A program made the position numbers and the translations under genes. The notes below the pieces were generated by a model. It saw nothing but the letters and a program-made list of their open reading frames with translations, made no database searches and had not been told where the DNA came from. From NCBI RefSeq assembly GCF_040712315.1, contig NC_134016.1, positions 21,620,390-21,684,389 of the forward strand: DNA of 64,000 nt, in the 5' to 3' direction. Shown piece by piece: positions 24,128 through 37,564 of this stretch; the first letter of the stretch is position 1, and each line of letters opens with the position of its first letter. This DNA is from Castanea sativa. Its lineage: Eukaryota; Streptophyta; Magnoliopsida; Fagales; Fagaceae.

Positions 24128-24556
24128 TAACTTTAACATGAAAAGTGTATGAATATCATCAACACCACAAAATTTACTTCCAACTTGACGAGGGAAAATG
24201 AACTTTAAGTTGAAAAGTATTTCAATATCATTAACTACACAAAACCCACTTACAATTTAATGGGGAGAAAAAAAATGTTACAAACTTGAAAAGTGTTTAA
24301 ATATTATCAACTACACAAAACTCAGTTACAATTTGATGAAAGAAATTAACTTCAACATGAAAAATGTTTCAATATCATCGACAACACAAAACCCACTTCA
24401 AAATTTCAATGAAAACAATCATAAACTTTAAGTTGAAAAATGTTTCTATTATCAACTAAAAATAAATAAATCCACTTATAATTTGATAAAAAGAAGTAAA
24501 TTTGTATAAATCGAAAAGTGTTTGAATATCATTAACTACATAAAACTCACTTAAAA
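24128..24556. repeat. Degenerate minisatellite, six units of about 75 bp
   Basis: Units begin near 24128, 24200, 24277, 24348, 24422 and 24504 and share ACTTTAA.(A/T)TGAAAAGTGT, AATATCAT.AACTACACAAA and ACCCACTTACAATTTGATG. Divergence between units is considerable. It ends about 0.45 kb before the probable transcription start of the SWIB-Plus3-GYF gene. Confidence 0.8.
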
Positions 24557-25793: not shown

Positions 25794-28700
25794 ATGGATA
25801 AAAGAGTGGAACCTTCACCATTTGAATGGTTAGAGGAATATAATGGGCAGCTATATTCTCCCATGAGAACAAAACGGAAGGTAAGATCAAGGAAAAAGGA
25901 ATTTATTGGTTGGGGATCGAGACAGCTCATCGAATTTCTTGCTTTGATTGGGAAAGATACCAGCCAGCAAATCTCTCAATATGATGTTACTGCCATTATA
26001 AATGACTATGTTAATAAGAACAACCTTCTTCACCCCTCAAAAAAGAAGAGGATTGTTTGCGATGAGAGGCTCCATTTCATTTTTGGAAGGAAAGCAATTA
26101 ACCGAAACAAAATTTATGAATTGCTAGGAGCACACTTTGCCGAGAATCAATACGAATCTGACGATGATTTGTCATGCAGCTCTGATGAAAGGGAGAATGT
26201 TTTTGAGAGCAATGAACGGGAGAATGTTTTGAGTTTTGAGAGGAAAACCCATCAAAAGAAAAAAGTTTATGAAAGTCCAAAAATCGATTTAACTCCAAAA
26301 AGCAATTTTGCAGCCATAAGTTTTCCCAATATTAAGCTCGTCTACCTGAAAAAGACTCTAGTTGAGGATCTTCTCAAGGACCCTGAAACCTCTGAAAGCA
26401 AGCTAGTAGGAAGTTATGTGAGGATCAAATCTGACCCTTACGATTACCTTCAGAAGAACTCTCACCAGCTTGTGCAAGTTACAGGTGATCTGCTAATTTT
26501 TATTCTCTTCTAATTGACAGTAATTTTTATTTACAAAAAATAGTTGTTATGTATTTTCCTTAAATGATCACAATTAAACTTTTATTAATGATCACGTTTC
26601 TTGTCAACAGCACTACAGTCCCTGAATAAAATTCCTTTTTGCGCATTGATACACCATTGATAAATAATCCATCATTCCAACTGCTATTAGTGTGTGGTCA
26701 ATTATGTTTATGTTACTATATACAGAGTTTAATGGGTTTATGTTTTGGTTAGTCCATAATCCATATATGCTATCTTTATTTTGTTAATATATGGTGGTGT
26801 TATTATATATTTTCTAGGTCTAAAGAAGGCATCTGGAACTGGCGATACAAATACGGAAGTCCTCCTCCAACTTTCCAATGTGGTAAAAGACACCTGTGTT
26901 GCCATGCTTTCGGATGATAATTTTTCTGAGGTAAGAGTTTTGCAGATTGATTTAAAGCTATGAGCTTTAAGCTTAATCTTGATAAGCCTAGTTTATCAAG
27001 TTACGTGCTGGTCAGTCAGCATTTGCATGCTTTTTTCTTTATGATATTGAGCCCTTGTTAGGCTCCTAGCCTGTATCAGCACTTTTTTGCACATTAGGGA
27101 AAGGATTTGCTGCAACCTTGTATGTTGCAATTGCTGCATAAAGGGTAAGGTGGCAGTCAAAGAGAAGTGACAAGTGTCCCATTGCCGCATAACTGAATTT
27201 TTTTTTTTCTTCTTCCTTTCTTTTGGTTTCAGCCCACGTCAATCCATGGGCCCCTTTTTTTAAAAAAATATTTTGTGATTTTACAAATAAACTGCTGTAG
27301 ATGTAAATTGTGTGATTTTGTAATACACAACTATTCTGTGATTTATGGTGAGTAATTGTTTTAGTAACGCCTAAGTTCAGAGGCAATAGTCTTCTCGGAG
27401 CCCCAACTCTTATAGGAACTTCGTATCCTATTCATTCCTTTGCTTTTTGGGTTTATTTGTTTTCTTGCTCTTAGCTGCTAAGTTTGAATAAAATAGTTTT
27501 TTTGTGTTAAAAAAAAATGTTATAAAAAACCCATAAAAGTAAAGGTGGTTCTTTAGATGTTAGAAGTGCTAAGATAAATCATTAATAGGCTTTGTAGACT
27601 GAGTTTTGGACCTTTTGTTCATCAATAAACAACATCTTTATAGGTGAGCTGTAATTGTTTCTAAAATTGGGAGACTGGTTAGTTTTGCAGTTTGAAGTTA
27701 TTATTGAAACTGCACTTTTTAACAACTTTTACTGAACGCTCTCAATTTTTTCAAAAAGCCTTACCAAACCCACCCTAAGTCGTAGATTTGAGGCATACGT
27801 ACTCATTGCTGACTTTGGGTGGGATCCATGCCCGCCCAAGTTTTAAAATGTTGGAAGTCTCTGCGAGGCTGCCTTTTCAACGCCCATCAAATTGCTGCTT
27901 TAAATATAGTCCACTTGGTCTTAAGCCTTAGTAGATCTTTCATTGCGCATTTTAGTGAAGGCAGTTACTTTGCCATGGTCATTTTACTGTAAAAACAAAG
28001 AGGGAACTGAAAAAAAAAAAAAAAGGAAAATTTTTTTTTGGTTGGGGGGGGGGGGGGGGGGGGGGGCGGTGGGGGTGTGCAGATCAGAAACCATTTGGAG
28101 TCAATCAGATGGTTGTTTTCTTTCCTCTTTGTCCATCAACATAATGCTCTTGAATAACTGATTCTTGGAGGTTTGTGGTGAGGATAAAGTATGGTAATGG
28201 GTGGGGTAAATGGGATTCTGGATCCTTTTATTTAGGAATCTCATTGGGCAAATGTGTTTAAAGGCGTTGTGATATGGTGGCATATCTTACTGGTATATTG
28301 AACAGCATAACCTTGATCATCATATTAATTATCCTGAGGATGGCGAGCTCTTAGATCCCATGGCTTTAAATTCCCATTTTAGGTTGGTGTCCTTTCAGGT
28401 TTTTCTTTCTTTTTAAGGTAGGAGAAATCCTCTGAGACCTTGAGAAATAGGCTTAAATATGCATGTAATAAGTCGGAGGCTGGTGTCACTACTCTTTATG
28501 GTGTGGACAAAAGATTTGATTTGTTTCACTTGCTGGATGCTGTTCACTGAAAAATGTACTCAAGTACATTTGTGCTATTGATTTTGATTTGGTCTTAAAT
28601 ACATGGATGTTCCTGTGTGCAATATTACAATTTTGGTTGGATGTTGGAATCATATTTCAAGTGGTTTTGAATTCTTCTAAGAAAAAAAAAGTATTTTTTT

Positions 28701-31700
28701 GTTCCTTTTGTGGTCATCATCGTGAACTCAAAGTTTATTTTTCTGATTAATAAATTTGCATTGCTTACCTATCAAAAATAACAACAGAAAAACATTTGTT
28801 CTATTGTGCTTGTATGTGTGGTCTACCTTAGCTTTTTAAAGTTAATTGCAGGAAGAATGTAAGGATTTGCAGCGGAGAATAAAAGATGGCTTGCTCAAAA
28901 GGCCAACTGTTGTAAGTATTCTTATCTATACTATTATTTAATGGTCTTCCTCTGTTTGGATTCCTCATTTTTTAGTTCAAAAATGCCCCTACACCCCTAT
29001 GTTTAAATAGAGACAAAACTAAATGACAATTCAATAATAATGCAACTCTAACTCCCAGTAAAACACTGCCTAAAAAATAGGACCACTCCTATTACTTTTT
29101 AAATTGATTTATTCACTTATAAATTAGATTTTCAAAATAAAAATTATATATATATATATAAAATAAAAAAATACAGTTTTTTTTTTCTACAAAATAAGAC
29201 CACTTAAAAAAAAAGCCTCATCGCACACGCAAAGCGTGTGTGATGAGGCTAGTTGAATTTTGATTTTGATTTTAATTATATATTATTACATTTTGGCTTG
29301 GCTAGAGACATGTATTGAGAACTTTGTGCATGTTTGTGTGGTTATTGTTGCACCCTAAATTCTTGGAGGTAATAGAATAGTTCATGGACAGAGAAGAGAA
29401 AAATTCTCATAATATGCATAACAAAAGCCTATAGCATGTTGGTTTCTTTTGGCATGATTTATGACCCATTTTTGGAGCTTCTGATTTTCTGAAAATATTT
29501 GTGTAGGCATTAGAAAAGGCTTGAACCCTGGTAAGACATCTTAATGTTAAAGCAAATACTTAAGTCTTGCCCTTTGAGGTTTAAAAAAGAAAATATGTAA
29601 GGTTCCGATGTGTAATCATCTTTCTACCTCCCCACAAGCAGTTATTTTATAAATTCCTTGCCTAGGCTTTGAGCTGTGTGTCTTAATTGTGAGTAAAACC
29701 ATCACTAGTGATATTAAGAAATATCATTTTTTTTTAGCTTTGTGCATGCACTCACAATATGAAGGGCCCTCTGTTTTTATTAATAGTGCCACCCCTTCTG
29801 TGATATCATACTTCTGCCATCATCTGCCATCACCACTGTTTGGGGAAATTATAATTTTCATCACTGAGCTTTGGTGTAGGTTCAATTTTGGTCCCTCAAA
29901 TTTGACAACTTTGGATTTGGTCTGTAAAATTACAAATAGGGAAAATTGTGGCCCCTCCATATATATTTTATGTTTATATGACTAATGGGATGCTGAGGTA
30001 CCTCATTTTTTAGGGACCAAATTTGAACTGACAAAATTAAACTGACCATAGACGGAGATGAAATTGTTCCATTTTTTAAATTTTAGAGACCAAAATTGAC
30101 GGACCAAAATTCAAATTTTAAATTTAAATTTGAACTTTTATAAATTTGATGGACCAAAATTGAACTTACTCCAATTTTTAGGGACCAAAATTATAATTTA
30201 CTTGTACTTTTTTTTCTTAGTTTTTATAAGCAAAGATAATTTTTTTTAATTGGAATTTTCTTGCTAAAGTTATAGCAATAGTAAGAAATGTTTTTCAATG
30301 TAAGAAGGCTTCAATGGCTGACCAAATGCATTATGCTAATGGCAACTTTCATATGTTCTGGACATTTTGTACTCCATCAAATTGAGGCAGGATGGAAAGT
30401 TATAGCAATAGTAAGAAATGTTTTTCAATGTAAGAAGGCTTCAATGGCTGACCAAATGCATTATGCTAATGGCAACTTTCATATGTTCTGGACATTTTAT
30501 ACTCCATCAAATTGAGGCAGGATGGAAAAGATATATAGTATCAGATCCCTTCCATAGAGTAAGCATTTGAGGTTAGAACTTTCTGTAAAAGCTTTGTGCT
30601 TTAGTGAAGCTTCCCCTTTCCCTTGGAAGAGTATCCAAAAAACAAAGGCCCCAACTAGAGAAAGTGCCAAATGATTGTTGTAGATTAGGTGCTGTATTTG
30701 TAAGAAGGGTGGGTAAACCACAAATCATTTACTTCTCCAATGTGAAGTAGGCAAAAAACTGGGGGACATGATTCTGTTTTTGTTTGAGATGCTGTGGGCT
30801 ATGACTAGACGAGTTTTGGATTTGTTGTTGACAAGGTCAGTTGGATAGACACCTTAATGTCGGCATATGGAACACTATTCCATTGTGTTTTAAGCAGTGT
30901 ATTTGGATAGAGAAATGCTCAAAGTTTTGGAGATTATGAGGAATCATTCTTAGACTTGAAGCTTGTGCTGATGAAGACCTAATATGATTGGATGGCTGTC
31001 AATGCATGTTTTTATTTCTCTAACTCATTCGAATTATTTGGCCTAGAGCTTTGTAGCTCAACTGGTTGGCATCTTTTTGTGTTTTTAATGGAGACATCCA
31101 AGGTTCAAATCCTCCCTCTCCTATTGTAACTATTGAATATAAAAATTAAAATTAAAAACTTATTTGAATTTTTTGATCTTTTTACTTTTTTTTTTTTGAA
31201 AGTTTTTTGATTGGCAAGTTTCACAACACAATGGGTCTTTTATGTTAAATGGCACCTCTACTAACCATGAAAATAAGGGGTGGTATGTGAGTCACAAGTT
31301 CAATCCCCATTAGGTGTGTAAGTTATAAACCAATAAAAAAAAAAAAAAAATCAAAATCTTATGCTAACAGCAAAAGGATACGTTGCATTTGCAGATTCTT
31401 TATCAGCTTCTTTTTGGCTAAACATTAACATCAGTTGCCTTTTTGATTGTCTCTAGTCTTTTGTTCATTTCTCCTTTTTTTGGTTATATTTGGTGTTTCA
31501 GTTTTTTGCTAATATTCAATATATTAATGTGGTTCTTAAACCTTTTCTATAGGTGGAGCTTCAACAAAAGGTCCAAATATTGCATGAGGATATTACAAAA
31601 CATGTAGGTACTAAGTATTTGAAAAATTAACTATTAGCCATCAGATTTGCTTGCACTTTTCTTTGCTTATGTTCTCATTGTTTTTATTTTATTTTTTGAG

Positions 31701-34700
31701 GTGGGGTCCAAGTTTGTCAATTAAGTGAACGGGGAAAGATATTATCCAGATGGGTAAATAGATTAAACTTCAAACAATAACAATTAATTACTATTGCTAT
31801 GAAGCAAGCTCATATTTATCTTTGTTACCTTTTCTTAATAACGAGAAACAATTTGAAAGAGGTGAGTCAATTGCTAGAACTATAGGTCCTAGAATCAAAA
31901 TGAAATAAGCTTACTTTTCACTTGAAATGTTGATGTGGCAAGAACCCAGAATACTGATATGAGTTATAACAAGCCTATGTGAATGCTAAGTTCTAAAAAA
32001 TATGAACATTTGTGCAAAATGTTGCTGACAACATGGAATTACAATTGATTTTTGTGAAATTATATATAATAGAACTGAATAGAAGAGCTCCTTGCTGCTG
32101 CAATAGAAATTTATAACAAAACAAGTATATCATGTTTGAATGGCAACTCTTTTCATTTGCGAGCATTTACTATGTTCGGAATTCCCTTCAAATGTTGCGT
32201 CTTATGTACATGTTTGTCTGTTTTGAACCTACATGATGTAAACAAGAACATTTGCAGTCATAATTATTAAAAGAGAAAAAGAAGACATTTCACAGAAAAA
32301 AAAAATGGAACTTCACATTGTTCATGAACAAATTTTCTTTATCGAAAAATTTATAATGGATATTGGTTCTATTAGCTTTTCCCTAATGTGGGTGATGTGC
32401 TTAGAGTCCAGGAATATATTAATTTTTAAACTATGCATGATTCTTCATTGTTGGGTGCTTTAATATCAAACTGCACATTTGACAAGCTTTGTCAGTATAT
32501 TACAGTACTGCGTAATACTTTCTTACCTTTAATTAATCTCATGTTGAACTGCAGTTTTTTTTTTTTTTTGGGGCAAACTTTAAGAAATTAATTGTGGTAT
32601 CTTCCATGTAAGGCTACATGCTCATCATTTCAGCTGTGAATTTTGTCTCATACTTTTGGTGCAATTTTGATTGAATTCATCATCAAACTGACACTTTCTC
32701 CATCCTGTCGTGGTTTTGTTCCAGTGGCTTGCAAGAGAAATTCCTATGTTACAAAACCTCATTGATCGAGCCAATGAAAAAGGATGGCGCAGAGAATATC
32801 CTTTTAATGATATTTTTAGATTACACACCATGGTTGAATGTTTTGGCCTATCTTGGTATTATTTCTGAATCTGACTCAACTGATGAATCAAGGGATGTGG
32901 TTCATATATATAACTGAGTCATTTGTTACACTATTGAACCAAAATCATTTATGTGGAATGTGCATTATGTGGGTGGTACATAAAAATGGTTAATAAGAGG
33001 ATTTCATGGCTAGGAAATGAAATATTAGTTTGTTCAATGTATATTATTTTGTCCTCTTTTGAAGCTTTTTTATCGAATGATGGTAACATGTTCATAGAAC
33101 AAAGAGCTTGTATTTTTTTTTCAGGTTAAAATCAAATCCAAGTCTTACACCTATACAGGCCGAATCCATGACCTTGCCCCATCCCTCCCCCCTCCCCCAA
33201 TCAGTTTATGGGGGAAGGATATACCATTTGGTCCAAAGACCGTTGGCTCCAAAATAAAATATCTGAGACTGTCTTTCCTTATTGATATACTTTTTCTTAT
33301 GATTTGATTGATAATACATGAAAGTAACTTTTTCCATGTATCTTAAGACTTTAAATCCGTATTTAGGTTGTAACTAAAACCTAATCTGAAACCTGAGATT
33401 GCTGGTTCAACTAGGATATAATTCAACCCTGTTTTATGGTTTCAACTTATTGTTTGATGCTGTGCTTGGATGTGGGATTTCAAGGTGAGATTTACTCAAA
33501 AGTTGTAATTTGAGAATTCCCTTTTTTTGATTTCCCTTGTTTGGCTTTAGCAGGAAAGTTATTTTAAAAATTCTGTTGAATTTTGAATTTGGCGTTTTAT
33601 GTTTTTGCATTTTTAAGCATTTGAATCTTAATTTAGAATTCCAAGGGGGGATGAGTAATTTACAAATTCTACCAACATTCTCGGACCACCCACCATTACA
33701 GAATTTTGAATTTGAGATATTAAGCATCAAATTGCAAGTTCAAATTCCGAGGGGGAAGGGATCATTTTTAAATTCTACTGACATTATTATTCTCAAACCA
33801 TATACCTATTTACACCATAACTACCATTATCGCGAGTCGTCACCAACACACAACACACCTCCACTACCACTAACACCAACAGAATGTTATCACACACCAC
33901 TATTACCAATTCATTACCATCATTATTGTAGCTACTGTAATGTTCTAATTTTTAAATATGATCATCCAATTGATGGAAACTTAAATTGATGGGATTGAAA
34001 TTCCTGTCAATTTAAAACCTGTCATTTTTTAAATTCTAAAAATTTTACCAGTTCTTCATCCAAACACAGCCTAGGAGTTTCCCAAATTAGATAAGGAAGT
34101 AGCGGTTACTGAAAAAATAGTTGGGGAGATGCACCCAACATTTGAATTTTGGCTATTGAATTTCTTGTGTTAGAGCAGGCATTGTGTTCCTGTAACTCGA
34201 TGGTCTACTACTTCCATCATTTTGAAGTATGCATGTGTTCCCCCGAAGATTATGTTCGTGGTTCATAAATAAGAAAAAGGATGCAGCTAGGCTTGATGGT
34301 ATGACCCACTTACTGAGAAACTTTTTATGATACATTGTATGCTGGAAATGATGCCAAATTTTTGGCCATTACATTGGTATCACTCATCTTTGGAAGCCGA
34401 CAATGATGAGAAGAGGGTGGAAGTAATGATGACATTGTCGGTATTGGTTGTGATTGATCTCTGCCCGTGTGTACTTTTGCATCATTCCTATAAATGATCA
34501 ATAACATGGACAAACAAGGCATGATTGAACCAATACTAGTAACACATGGTTACAAGGAATGTGATATATTCCCCCAGCAGATCCATACCATACACTTTAC
34601 TGACAATGGTCAGAACACATAATTTTATGACTAGATCCATGGTGAGTTTTATATTATTTCTCATCAACGATAGGGTTTTTTATTTTTATTTTTATTATTT

Positions 34701-37564
34701 TTGCATAGGATTGGCATTGTGACTATCTTGGACTCAACCTAATATTTTTCTATTCACCCAAAGCAGTTATGAGCCACAACACAAAGGCTTACGTACTATG
34801 CTTGTTCATGTTATTTGATAAGCGGTCCAATAATTGCCACCCTGGGCTCCTAAATTTGTTCTCTGTTAAAGCAATTAGAAGTGGTGAGTTATAATTTAGT
34901 TAGAAGAAGTAATGCTTTGCAAGATTCCAATTAGAGTTTAGGTCTCTAGGAACTTTTCTCATGAGAGCTCAGGGACTGGAGCAGGGTTTATGATCTATAA
35001 GAGGTGCAATAGTTGGAGGAAAAAGTGATCCTTTAAGGCTAGTATGGGATTCTCTGGCTCCTTGGGTAGAGGTGGCGGCCCCTTGGGTGAGAGAGATGCT
35101 GCACGTAACAGAAACATAATATACTTTTTTCCCTTGGGAGTTTGCATTATTTGGGTTCTAACATTGTCACATTAGAAAATACGTCTGATAGGATAATTTT
35201 CTGCTGCATCTAAAAAAAATCTTCTCACCCATTATTACATTTATTGATACCTTTAGTATTGCTAACCACCAGAGCGTCCTATTTTGAACACTTAATTCAC
35301 TATTTTGACTCTCTCAAAATGGAAGGAAATTTTGTGTCAGACTTTTGTTAAAGTGTCTTAATTGAATCTGCATGGATGGATCCTCTTTTTTCCTCTAATA
35401 CTACTACATTTTTAAGACCATCTTCTCACAGCAATGTCATGAAAATTATCTGGTTTTGCATGCCTGCTGTATGTATGTGGTTTTATGTTGTTGATACCCA
35501 TGCTTTGTTTAATACTTCATCACAAAAAGCAATGTACCATAGGAATGTCGTGTCTTGTATCTTGTAGAGAGAACTTGTGATGGAATTTCGACTTACATAA
35601 CGAAAAAATTGTAAGTAAACTTTCCCATAAAGCATCTTTGATATCCTTAATTGATTTACGCTTGATCAATACCTGGAGAAAAAGCAGCTGCTCCAGAATC
35701 CAGATGAACAGTCACGGCTGTTGCATGAGGTCCCAAAAGTAATTGCTGATGAAATAGGACCAGAAGCTACACCACAGGATACTCCAGAAAATATAAAACA
35801 AGCAAACAGTGGTTCACCTAGGTCAATCCTCAGTGGAGCTTCTAAAATTCCTAATCATGTTATAGCAACAAATGGAACTGCATCAGCTTGGACGTCACAT
35901 AGCACTGATTATGCAGGTGCATCATTTAGATTATTCATTTCTTTCCTTGAAGTGTTTCCCTGAATAGTTGAGGTCTTTTAATCTTGTGTCTGTGTGACAG
36001 TGATCGCCACATTTCTGCAATGTTCATGACTGCATTTTTTTATTTTTTAGTTGGGGGTGGGGGGGGGGGGGGGGGTGTTATTTAACATGGATCTTCAGAA
36101 TTGACTGACCTATTGAGTAAGAAATGGAATTGGTGAAACATAATACTTTATTCTTAAAGTATCTTTGGTTATACTACAATTCATTCAGATGGAATTTGGA
36201 AGTCACTCTTCCAGAATCCGTGAAATAGTTCACTTTTTTGGTTTTCCCACGTTAATAAAAATGACTAGTTTTCCAAAGATCGTGCCTAAGATGACATCAA
36301 GTAATGAGAGAATCCACTTTTATGTCAAAGATTGTGGTGATGCAATGGAAATCATCATTGATTCATTCCATCTGACGTAATTCCCAAACTACCCTCAGCA
36401 TCATGAAGAATGCCTTGCACTTCCTGTTGCACGAGTTCAATTTTGAATGATTCCAGTAACGTAGGATTAAATGAGCACACCAAATACATTGAGGTTGATT
36501 GCAGTTTTGCATAAGATTTGTTTGTGTGGTTGGTTGGAGAAAAAAGGAGGGGATGAAGAGAGAGAGAGAGAGGGACTATCTTGGTGTTTGGTGAATAAAG
36601 GGAATGAAAATTTTGGGAAACCATTACTAAAATTGCATTCCATAAAACCACCAATTTGATGCGTTGCCAAAATAGCTTTTGCAGAGCAATTTTAGCTTGT
36701 TTGGGAAGTTGTAACAATTTTTTGTTACAGGCTGACCATGATGGGCATTCATGTTCCAGTTTTGAGGGCAAGTGTCAAGACTCAAGATAGTGATGTTATG
36801 TTATATCTTTTAATTGCAAGTGATGACATATATAGAGGAGTCAATCAGTCTCTATTCTAGTTCTAGACTACCATTCTGTCTTACTCATATTTCAATTCCA
36901 TAAAAGGGGAAATAAATGTATATCTTCAGGGAATGCCACAAGCCCCTTTTATCACCCGCTTTGGTGATATCTATAATTATATTGTTTCCCATTGTCCCTT
37001 GTTATGGTGCACTTTAAATTTGCAAGGGGCAGACTATAAAACAAACCGTTCCTCCCCCCCGGCCCCCTTCTTTTTTTTCTTGTCATGATTATCCTTTAAA
37101 TTCTGATATCTCAATTATCCTTTAGTCTAATCATTTACTTAATTAATCATGCTTTTGTTGCAGAGTTTAATCACAATGTTATTGAAGAACAGTCAGTTCA
37201 ACCATCACATTTCATAAACAAGAGTAATGGTGAGACACAGCTTGCAAATACAGAGGTGAATAAGTTTGTTGATGAAATGGTGGCAAAGCAGGTAATGACA
37301 TCTCAAGTGATTGATTTGAGTGATGACGAGGAGGTCGAAGAATTAAGTGTTGCCAAGAAAGTTCCTGATGACATGCTGGGAAGCTTGTTATGGCATTACT
37401 TAGATCCCCAAGGAGACATACAGGGGCCCTTTTCTTTAACATCCCTAAAACGTTGGTATGATGCTGATTACTTTCCTCCAGATTTTCAGGTCTGGAGGGC
37501 AGATCGGATCCAAGATGGAGCTGTATTATTGAAAGACATACTTGGCCAGAATTTTCCCAATTGA
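25794..37564 (+). CDS. SWIB-Plus3-GYF domain protein (At5g08430-like)
   Basis: Seven exons: 25794-26484, 26818-26930, 28852-28911, 31553-31603, 32725-32795, 35660-35916 and 37164-37564. Their sum is 1644 nt, exactly 548 codons including TGA, for a 547-residue protein, close to the Arabidopsis homologue as I recall it. Residues about 35-116 form a SWIB/MDM2 domain ([15 protein letters not shown]). Residues about 178-310 match Plus-3 ([40 protein letters not shown]). Residues about 487-541 are a GYF domain ([20 protein letters not shown], then the tryptophan-containing [12 protein letters not shown]), preceded by an acidic stretch ([12 protein letters not shown]). Such proteins are nuclear and are linked to chromatin and transcription (Plus-3 as in Rtf1; GYF binds proline-rich ligands; NERD is a larger relative); the exact role here is inference. 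Six introns: five GT-AG and one AT-AC. No damage was seen, so it looks functional. Confidence 0.93.
28044..28067. repeat. Poly-G tract in intron 2
   Basis: An almost pure run of about 22 G after a poly-A/poly-T pair; similar G or C runs occur at 36055-36075, 50882-50896 and 58320-58333. Lengths in such tracts are prone to sequencing error. Confidence 0.8.
28925..29252 (+). mobile_element. Non-autonomous Helitron, copy 2, with intact 3' hairpin
   Basis: It starts TCTATACTATTATTTAA after A (28924) and ends with the hairpin CACACGC-AAA-GCGTGTG, then TGATGAGGCTAG, then T (29253): all three Helitron hallmarks. At 328 bp it is non-coding. It lies 13 nt downstream of the 5' splice site at 28911/28912 in intron 3 of the SWIB gene. 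Confidence 0.9.
29844..30203. mobile_element. Fold-back MITE in intron 3
   Basis: GGGAAATTATAATTTTCATC ... AGGTTCAATTTTGGTCCCT on the left is mirrored by AGTAAATTATAATTTTGGTC ... AAGTTCAATTTTGGTCCAT on the reversed right end, over about 60 bp. It is non-coding with no settled TSD. Confidence 0.65.
30266..30525. repeat. Recent 130-bp tandem duplication in intron 3
   Basis: Copies 30266-30395 and 30396-30525 differ at essentially one base (ACATTTTGTAC versus ACATTTTATAC). Both start AAAGTTATAGCAATAG and end GAGGCAGGATGG. Confidence 0.95.
30530..31020 (+). pseudogene. LINE reverse-transcriptase C-terminal (zf-RVT) relic
   Basis: Broken plus-strand frames recall the zinc-binding tail of plant L1 ORF2: [15 protein letters not shown] at about 30620, [20 protein letters not shown] near 30700 (family: VDHLLLHC), then an [19 protein letters not shown] stretch and (L)DREMLK near 30910. 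Several stops and shifts are present, so it is a dead fragment. Confidence 0.55.
31045..31155 (+). mobile_element. tRNA-derived SINE in intron 3
   Basis: A box GTAGCTCAACTGGTTGGC (31053-31070) and B box GGTTCAAATCC (31102-31112), then an AT-rich tail. Spacing fits a pol III promoter of a tRNA-derived SINE rather than a foldable tRNA gene. Confidence 0.7.
31235..31349 (+). mobile_element. Second SINE-like fragment with poly-A tail
   Basis: A weak A-box-like TAAATGGCACCTC is followed by CAAGTTCAATCCCC (B-box-like, about 31296-31308) and a 16-nt poly-A ending near 31349. Confidence 0.5.
32796..35659 (+). other. U12-type AT-AC intron of the SWIB-Plus3-GYF gene
   Basis: The exon ends ...AGAGA and the intron opens ATATCCTTTT, the U12 5' splice site consensus. 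It ends TTGATTTAC with a branch-site-like ATCCTTAAT at 35643-35651, about 10 nt from the end. Joining 32795 to 35660 gives [19 protein letters not shown] in frame, the expected family sequence. No GT donor nearby gives this join. Confidence 0.85.
33459..34070. mobile_element. MITE with GCTGTGYTTGGATG ends inside the AT-AC intron
   Basis: The left end GCTGTGCTTGGATG pairs with the right end CATCCAAACACAGC. The interior contains two TTCAAATTC/GAATTTGAA-rich arms and no coding sequence; the 150-residue frame across it is compositional. Confidence 0.6.
35917..37163 (+). other. Intron 6 of the SWIB gene, no feature recognised
   Basis: A GT-AG intron with a poly-G run near 36055-36075 and a short (GA)n at about 36558-36572. 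Open frames on either strand show no domain. Confidence 0.6.

What the first reader, a model, noticed from the sequence alone, without database searches (positions are those of the whole stretch)
32796..35659. U12-type AT-AC intron in the SWIB-Plus3-GYF gene
The intron starts ATATCCTTTT and ends in AC with ATCCTTAAT about 10 nt before the end. Splicing 32795 to 35660 yields GWRRELDQYLEKKQLL in frame, and the full gene sums to exactly 548 codons. AT-AC introns spliced by the minor spliceosome are rare, and at 2.9 kb with a MITE inside this one is long. Whether it is described for this family I do not know.
Basis: partly seen in the sequence, partly recalled or inferred. Interest (0 to 1): 0.75.

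Follow-up and report, generated by a model that had tools for sequence, protein, structure and literature searches.

The report
Conserved AT-AC intron in plant gene
A rare kind of intron, of the type removed by a second, minor splicing machine, sits at the same spot in four related chromatin-protein genes of this plant and, it seems, widely across flowering plants; it is real and old but of a known kind, and public gene models often read through it.

Summary
The SWIB-Plus3-GYF gene (seven exons, 548 codons with stop) joins 32795 to 35660 across a 2864-nt intron. It begins ATATCCTTT, the only copy of that 9-mer in 64 kb on either strand, and ends ATCCTTAATTGATTTAC. Of the borders tested, only AT-AC, or a one-base slide to TA-CG, restores the conserved peptide. 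I read it as a U12-type intron. Three paralogues in the same genome carry the identical donor after the same codon and a 71-nt exon before it, with much shorter introns (375-887 nt; two AT-AC, one AT-AA). Of 322 listed public relatives, 34 models read through the donor (E-Y-P), in both eudicot groups of the family and in monocots. Of 17 read-through 3' ends that I could read by eye, 16 show the threonine expected from AC and one the arginine expected from AG. All 42 relatives picked for lying on short, evidently spliced contigs have the joined peptide. The simplest reading is one intron older than the monocot-eudicot split and the paralogue duplication. It is ordinary in kind; its depth, its place in a chromatin family and its effect on annotation are the useful part. 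RNA reads from this species and minor-spliceosome dependence could not be tested.

The parts
25794..37564 (+). SWIB-Plus3-GYF gene (At5g08430 type), coding exons 25794-26484, 26818-26930, 28852-28911, 31553-31603, 32725-32795, 35660-35916, 37164-37564
   Evidence: Spliced translation 547 aa + stop; Pfam Plus-3 179-278, GYF 491-528, SWIB 53-115; 96% identical to P0001 over 100% of the query
32725..32795 (+). Exon 5, 71 nt, with a GT-AG intron on its 5' side and the AT-AC intron on its 3' side
   Evidence: exon 5 is also 71 nt in three paralogues
32796..35659 (+). AT-AC intron, 2864 nt, phase 2 (after GA of a GAG codon)
   Evidence: no GT-AG or GC-AG pair tested restores the conserved peptide
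32796..32804 (+). 5' splice site ATATCCTTT, 9 of 9 to the U12-type consensus (consensus recalled)
   Evidence: only copy in the window on both strands; same 9 nt in three paralogues
35643..35651 (+). Branch-site element ATCCTTAAT, 8 of 9 to TTCCTTRAY (consensus recalled), adenosines 9 and 10 nt before the intron end
35658..35659 (+). 3' splice site AC
   Evidence: 16 of 17 readable read-through 3' ends of relatives have T (ACN) at this place
33459..34070 (.). MITE-like element inside the intron, 612 nt, 14-nt terminal inverted repeats 33459-33472 / 34057-34070
   Evidence: 17 further partial, diverged matches in the genome

Best explanation
This is a U12-type AT-AC intron in an At5g08430-type SWIB-Plus3-GYF gene. 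The U11/U12 di-snRNP would recognise ATATCCTT and the branch element ATCCTTAAT, U6atac would replace U11 at the donor, and the AC 9-10 nt after the branch adenosines would be joined to exon 6, giving E-L across a phase-2 junction. Shown here: borders, motifs, frame, the same donor in three paralogues, and spliced or read-through products in relatives. Inferred from established knowledge of minor introns: that the minor spliceosome does the work in this species. The intron was most simply inherited from an ancestor that lived before monocots and eudicots split and before the family duplicated.
For: Restoration of the conserved peptide only by AT-AC, apart from a TA-CG slide that is no known splice pair. 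Donor 9 of 9, branch element 8 of 9, short branch-to-end distance. The relative P0001 (553 aa on a contig of at most 2317 bases, 96% identical) has the joined GWRRELDQYLEKK; so short a contig cannot hold these introns. Three same-genome paralogues carry GA|ATATCCTTT at the homologous codon, and joining it to their AC, AC and AA ends restores the conserved peptide, which the GT-AG and GC-AG pairs listed there do not. 34 of 322 listed relatives read through the donor as E-Y-P, in both eudicot groups and in monocots; none of the 42 picked short-contig relatives does. 16 of 17 readable read-through 3' ends show T = AC+N.
Against: No RNA reads from this species. P0001 is a relative, and that its contig comes from RNA is inferred from its length. 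At protein resolution E-Y-P only says RTAYCC, so AT versus GT in other species is inferred from the 3' threonine. P0207 (Heliosperma) suggests AG at the 3' end in one lineage. The branch-to-end distance is 17 nt in two paralogues, long for the class, and the third ends AA, not AC. The minor spliceosomal RNAs could not be searched in this genome (families RF00007 and RF00619: not completed).
Confidence: 0.95

Rival explanations
1. A GT-AG (or GC-AG) major-spliceosome intron with other borders, the AT-AC motifs being chance.
For: In-frame GT-AG and GC-AG combinations exist, e.g. donor 32833 or 32770 with last intron bases 35678-35696. Public models of relatives often differ at this junction.
Against: All of the listed combinations lose or add residues at the conserved GWRRE-L..YLE stretch. 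42 of 42 picked short-contig relatives keep it (P0284 read). The 9-nt donor is identical in four paralogues.
Confidence: 0.02
2. A major-spliceosome AT-AC intron (the U2-dependent AT-AC class).
For: Such introns exist (stated in PMC7072748, passage); terminal dinucleotides alone do not decide the class.
Against: The donor is ATATCCTTT, not the ATAAGT-like donor of that class (recalled), and a U12-type branch element lies 9-10 nt from the end, with no pyrimidine-rich tract just before the AC by eye.
Confidence: 0.03
3. On top of being a U12-type intron, its slow removal is a regulatory valve: limiting minor-spliceosome activity sets the output of this chromatin-protein family, with exon-5 skipping as a bypass by the major spliceosome.
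For: Position and donor conserved across paralogues and widely in angiosperms. 33 of 322 listed models have no match to the exon-5 peptide (score cut-off; truncated models included), and 7 of these join straight to the tyrosine of exon 6: P0006, P0007, P0008, P0010, P0011, P0051, P0313. In Juglans P0006 and P0007 the loss against P0003 is 27 residues, i.e. 81 nt = exon 5 plus 10 nt of exon 6, in frame.
Against: Conservation alone does not show regulation. The skipped models may be prediction artefacts. In this window the codon before the tyrosine is CAA, so the AG that the bypass would need is absent.
Confidence: 0.12

Closest known systems
U12-type AT-AC introns of plants, catalogued by genome-wide surveys (PMC7367187, PMC10639083; passages seen)
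   Same: Donor, branch element, short branch-to-end spacing, AT-AC ends, phase other than 0
   Different: 2864 nt with a MITE-like element inside; no passage I saw names this gene family
The same intron in three paralogues of this genome (C1, C5, C12)
   Same: Same codon, 71-nt exon 5, identical 9-nt donor
   Different: 887, 375 and 528 nt; C1 ends AA; C5 and C12 have GACCTTAAC 17 nt from the end and an exon 6 that starts with A
Conserved U12 intron of plant CBP20 genes (PMC5932401; start of abstract seen in the listings)
   Same: A plant U12 intron held at one place across species
   Different: Other gene; the part seen does not give the terminal dinucleotides
ZMP (AT5G63700) and NERD, PHD-SWIB-Plus3-(GYF) proteins of plant DNA methylation (PMC9699677, passages seen)
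   Same: Same protein family; that paper infers a four-domain ancestor (zinc finger, SWIB, Plus-3, GYF)
   Different: A study of protein function; the passages seen do not discuss intron type

Membership tests
U12-type (minor) intron | 5' splice site RTATCCTTT (consensus recalled) | tested here: met
   ATATCCTTT at 32796, only copy in the window
U12-type (minor) intron | Branch element TTCCTTRAY near the 3' end (consensus recalled) | tested here: met
   ATCCTTAAT 35643-35651, 8 of 9, adenosines 9 and 10 nt from the end
U12-type (minor) intron | AT-AC (or GT-AG) ends that give the conserved protein | tested here: met
   Border test
[quoted passage not shown] a bias, not a requirement | tested here: met
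   Phase 2
U12-type (minor) intron | Excised at these borders in RNA | tested here: inconclusive
   Only from relatives: 42 of 42 picked short-contig entries have the joined peptide (P0284); no reads from this species
U12-type (minor) intron | Excision depends on U11/U12/U4atac/U6atac | not testable with these tools
   Needs mutants or snRNA blocking; searches of this genome for the U12 and U6atac RNA families did not complete (RF00007, RF00619)
U2-dependent AT-AC intron | ATAAGT-like donor without a U12 branch element (recalled) | tested here: not met
   Donor ATATCC, U12-like branch element present
At5g08430-type SWIB-Plus3-GYF gene | SWIB, Plus-3 and GYF domains, no PHD | tested here: met
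   Pfam matches SWIB, Plus-3, GYF and no PHD model; the window protein falls in a group of 112 tips without a long N-terminal part (support 0.76; 0.991 for the 111 without its first branch)

The most novel reading that the evidence does not exclude
An AT-AC intron fixed before the monocot-eudicot split has been kept in all four family copies found in this genome, including PHD-type relatives of the methylation factor ZMP. It may act as a shared valve through which minor-spliceosome activity sets the dose or isoform (with or without the exon-5 peptide) of this family, a control so far hidden because gene models often break at this junction.
Probability: 0.12. Interest if true: 0.55.

Novelty: new member of a known kind. 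Interest (0 to 1): 0.3.

Why it matters
It is a dated, family-wide case: one minor intron kept in several paralogues and in monocots and eudicots, while intron length (375-2864 nt) and 3' end (AC or AA) changed. It also shows a concrete blind spot: 34 of 322 listed public models run through the donor, as prediction errors or intron-retaining transcripts. That puts intron-coded residues into protein databases, and surveys that start from annotated introns cannot see an intron the annotation missed. The link between minor splicing and a family that includes a methylation factor is easy to test in existing mutants.

Tried and rejected
GT-AG or GC-AG borders: in-frame options exist but none of those tested restores the conserved peptide (paralogues, where I printed only GT-AG and GC-AG pairs and pairs that use the ATATCCTTT donor). 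The donor motif alone as genome-wide evidence: rejected, RTATCCTTT is no more frequent than its reversed control. Plasmid collection: no match. Rfam on the window: no match at gathering scores. The fifth pattern hit, C11:29014132 (GTTTCCT, 2 mismatches), was taken as chance because its donor differs and the reversed control also gives one hit. The 17 readable 3' ends were chosen by eye and checked; models where the start of exon 6 could not be placed (e.g. P0107, P0209), or that jump from the donor side into the middle of exon 6 (e.g. P0041, P0175, P0179, P0213), were left out. The 42 short-contig entries were picked by eye from the tables (longest contig at most 3.6 kb). In the tree the letter P only means more than 170 residues before the SWIB motif, and G a strict GYF pattern; weak GYF-like ends are missed (C1 has one below the Pfam cut-off, 19.3 against 25.7 bits). 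264 of 322 sequences entered the first tree and 30 of the 34 read-through models are among them; P0001, P0266 and P0277 are not. Support values moved when the window protein was added: GYF-type group 0.862 to 0.76, PHD-type 0.977 to 0.946, monocots 1.0 to 0.999. Only the best 120 hits of each protein search are listed, so lower-ranked relatives (of 790, 485 and 542 hits) were not seen.

Full report
What the window holds. The window lies on C4 of a 716-Mb genome in 13 contigs. The best named relatives of the protein are Juglans and Carpinus, and one exon of the C1 paralogue is 79% identical to a Fagus crenata protein, so I take the plant to be one of the Fagales; that is inference. The gene has seven coding exons, 1644 nt, 548 codons with the stop. 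Pfam finds SWIB, Plus-3 and GYF.

The intron. Between exon 5 (32725-32795, 71 nt) and exon 6 (35660-35916) lie 2864 nt starting ATATCCTTTT and ending ATCCTTAATTGATTTAC. I tested every first intron base 32726-32899 against every last intron base 35560-35759: the peptide GWRRELDQYLEKKQLLQ arises only with AT-AC at 32796/35659 or with TA-CG one base on, the latter through the synonymous GAA codon. TA-CG is no splice pair that I know of. No GT-AG or GC-AG pair works. ATATCCTTT is found once in 64 kb on both strands. RTATCCTTT occurs 19,923 times in the genome on both strands, fewer than its reversed control at 24,484, so only the place makes it meaningful. The consensus sequences for U12-type introns are recalled.

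Relatives by protein. Three protein searches listed 322 distinct proteins out of 790, 485 and 542 hits. 34 of 322 read straight through the donor as KGWxxE-Y-P: 11 new from the first search, 15 from the second, 8 from the third (Colocasia, Iris, two Zizania, Lolium, Leersia, Puccinellia, Platanthera). E-Y-P means RTAYCC at protein resolution. Where models instead retain the 3' end, the residue before the exon-6 start is T in 16 and R in 1 (P0207, Heliosperma) of the 17 I could read by eye; T is what AC joined to the exon gives, R is what AG|G gives. 42 listed proteins, picked by eye, come from contigs of at most 3.6 kb, too short for the introns of such genes and so evidently spliced; all 42 have the joined peptide and none has E-Y-P (P0284 read). 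P0001, 96% identical to the window protein, is one of them. The contrast suggests that the read-through models are mostly prediction errors, of the kind already described for non-canonical introns (PMC5716242, passages); some may be intron-retaining transcripts.

Paralogues in the same genome. A pattern for the exon-5 end plus donor (up to 2 mismatches) has five hits, against one for the reversed pattern. Besides the window these are C1:90352089, C12:23363541, C5:66909104, and C11:29014132, which I take as chance. tblastn shows that the first three lie in SWIB-Plus3 genes more like the PHD-type relatives than the window gene; C1 and C5 show PHD-region matches, while the C12 stretch I fetched begins inside that region. 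All three have a 71-nt exon 5 and GA|ATATCCTTT. C12 ends AC after 528 nt and C5 ends AC after 375 nt, both with GACCTTAAC 17 nt from the end. C1 ends AA after 887 nt with an element reading ATGCTTAAC about 11 nt from the end (by eye); among the pairs printed, AT-AA with this donor is the one that restores the peptide, and the other two (GT-AG, GC-AG) lose residues. AT-AA is described as the commonest non-canonical minor intron type in plants (PMC10639083, passage).

Age. In a tree of 264 of the 322 proteins, repeated with the window protein added, a clade of 68 tips in which every tip with a named source is a monocot (support 1.0, then 0.999) stands apart from a group of 65 eudicot proteins of PHD type (0.977, then 0.946) and a group of 111 (112 with the window) At5g08430-type proteins (0.862, then 0.76). 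Of the 30 read-through models in the tree, 6 lie in the monocot clade, 11 in the PHD-type group, 11 in the At5g08430-type group and 2 beside them (Thalictrum, Macleaya). The simplest reading is one intron older than the monocot-eudicot split and older than the duplication; independent gains at one place are not excluded by protein data alone. This agrees with the four-domain ancestor proposed for ZMP-like proteins (PMC9699677, passage).

Literature. Searches for At5g08430 (four papers, none with a splicing title or abstract start), for At5g08430 with 'U12-type intron' (none), for U12-type, AT-AC, minor spliceosome, Arabidopsis and SWIB (30 papers, no SWIB in the 20 listed), for SWIB, Plus-3, GYF and intron (seven papers; passages of two seen, no mention of U12 in the second), and for family gene codes with U12 terms (85 papers, no gene code in the 15 listed) showed me no paper on this intron. 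Further searches on AT-AC and minor introns are. The library lacks most subscription papers and supplements could not be searched, so genome-wide tables may well list it. AT-AC is 0.06% of plant splice sites (PMC6310983, abstract passage) and 26% of Arabidopsis U12-type introns (PMC7367187 Table 2).

How it most likely works. U11/U12 recognition of donor and branch element, U6atac exchange, AC joined to exon 6. The sequence steps are shown; the machinery is inferred. A regulatory role is possible but unsupported beyond conservation. A possible bypass is seen in models that join straight to the tyrosine of exon 6 without the exon-5 peptide (7 of 322: Juglans, Carya, Carpinus, Ricinus, Zingiber); in Juglans the loss is 27 residues in frame, as if a major-type acceptor 10 nt inside exon 6 were used. 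In this window that acceptor is absent (CAA before the tyrosine codon).

Verdict. Observation and interpretation confirmed. A known kind of intron in a well-documented place; modest surprise.

Noticed in passing
L021 (G000:C1:90345000-90354999), intron 90352112-90352998: The C1 paralogue has the same minor intron with AT-AA ends; the GT-AG and GC-AG pairs listed there lose conserved residues.
   Followed up: partly
Proteins P0006, P0007, P0008, P0010, P0011, P0051, P0313: Public models in Juglans, Carya, Carpinus, Ricinus and Zingiber join straight to the exon-6 tyrosine without the exon-5 peptide; in Juglans exactly 27 residues (81 nt) are gone in frame, a possible major-spliceosome bypass of the minor intron.
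   Followed up: partly
Protein P0207 (Heliosperma): Its read-through 3' end shows R, as AG|G would give, suggesting a changed 3' splice site in that lineage.
   Followed up: no
Trees: In eudicots the family splits into PHD-type proteins without a strict GYF match and GYF-type proteins without a long N-terminal part. PMC9699677 places GYF loss in the ancestor of rosids; here the PHD-type group also holds asterids such as Solanum. C1 keeps a weak GYF-like C-terminus with a second, stop-containing copy behind it.
   Followed up: partly
window 33459-34070: Old MITE-like element with 14-nt terminal inverted repeats; 17 diverged partial matches in the genome.
   Followed up: partly
window about 30266-30526: Tandem duplication of about 130 nt inside the third intron, seen by eye.
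   Followed up: no
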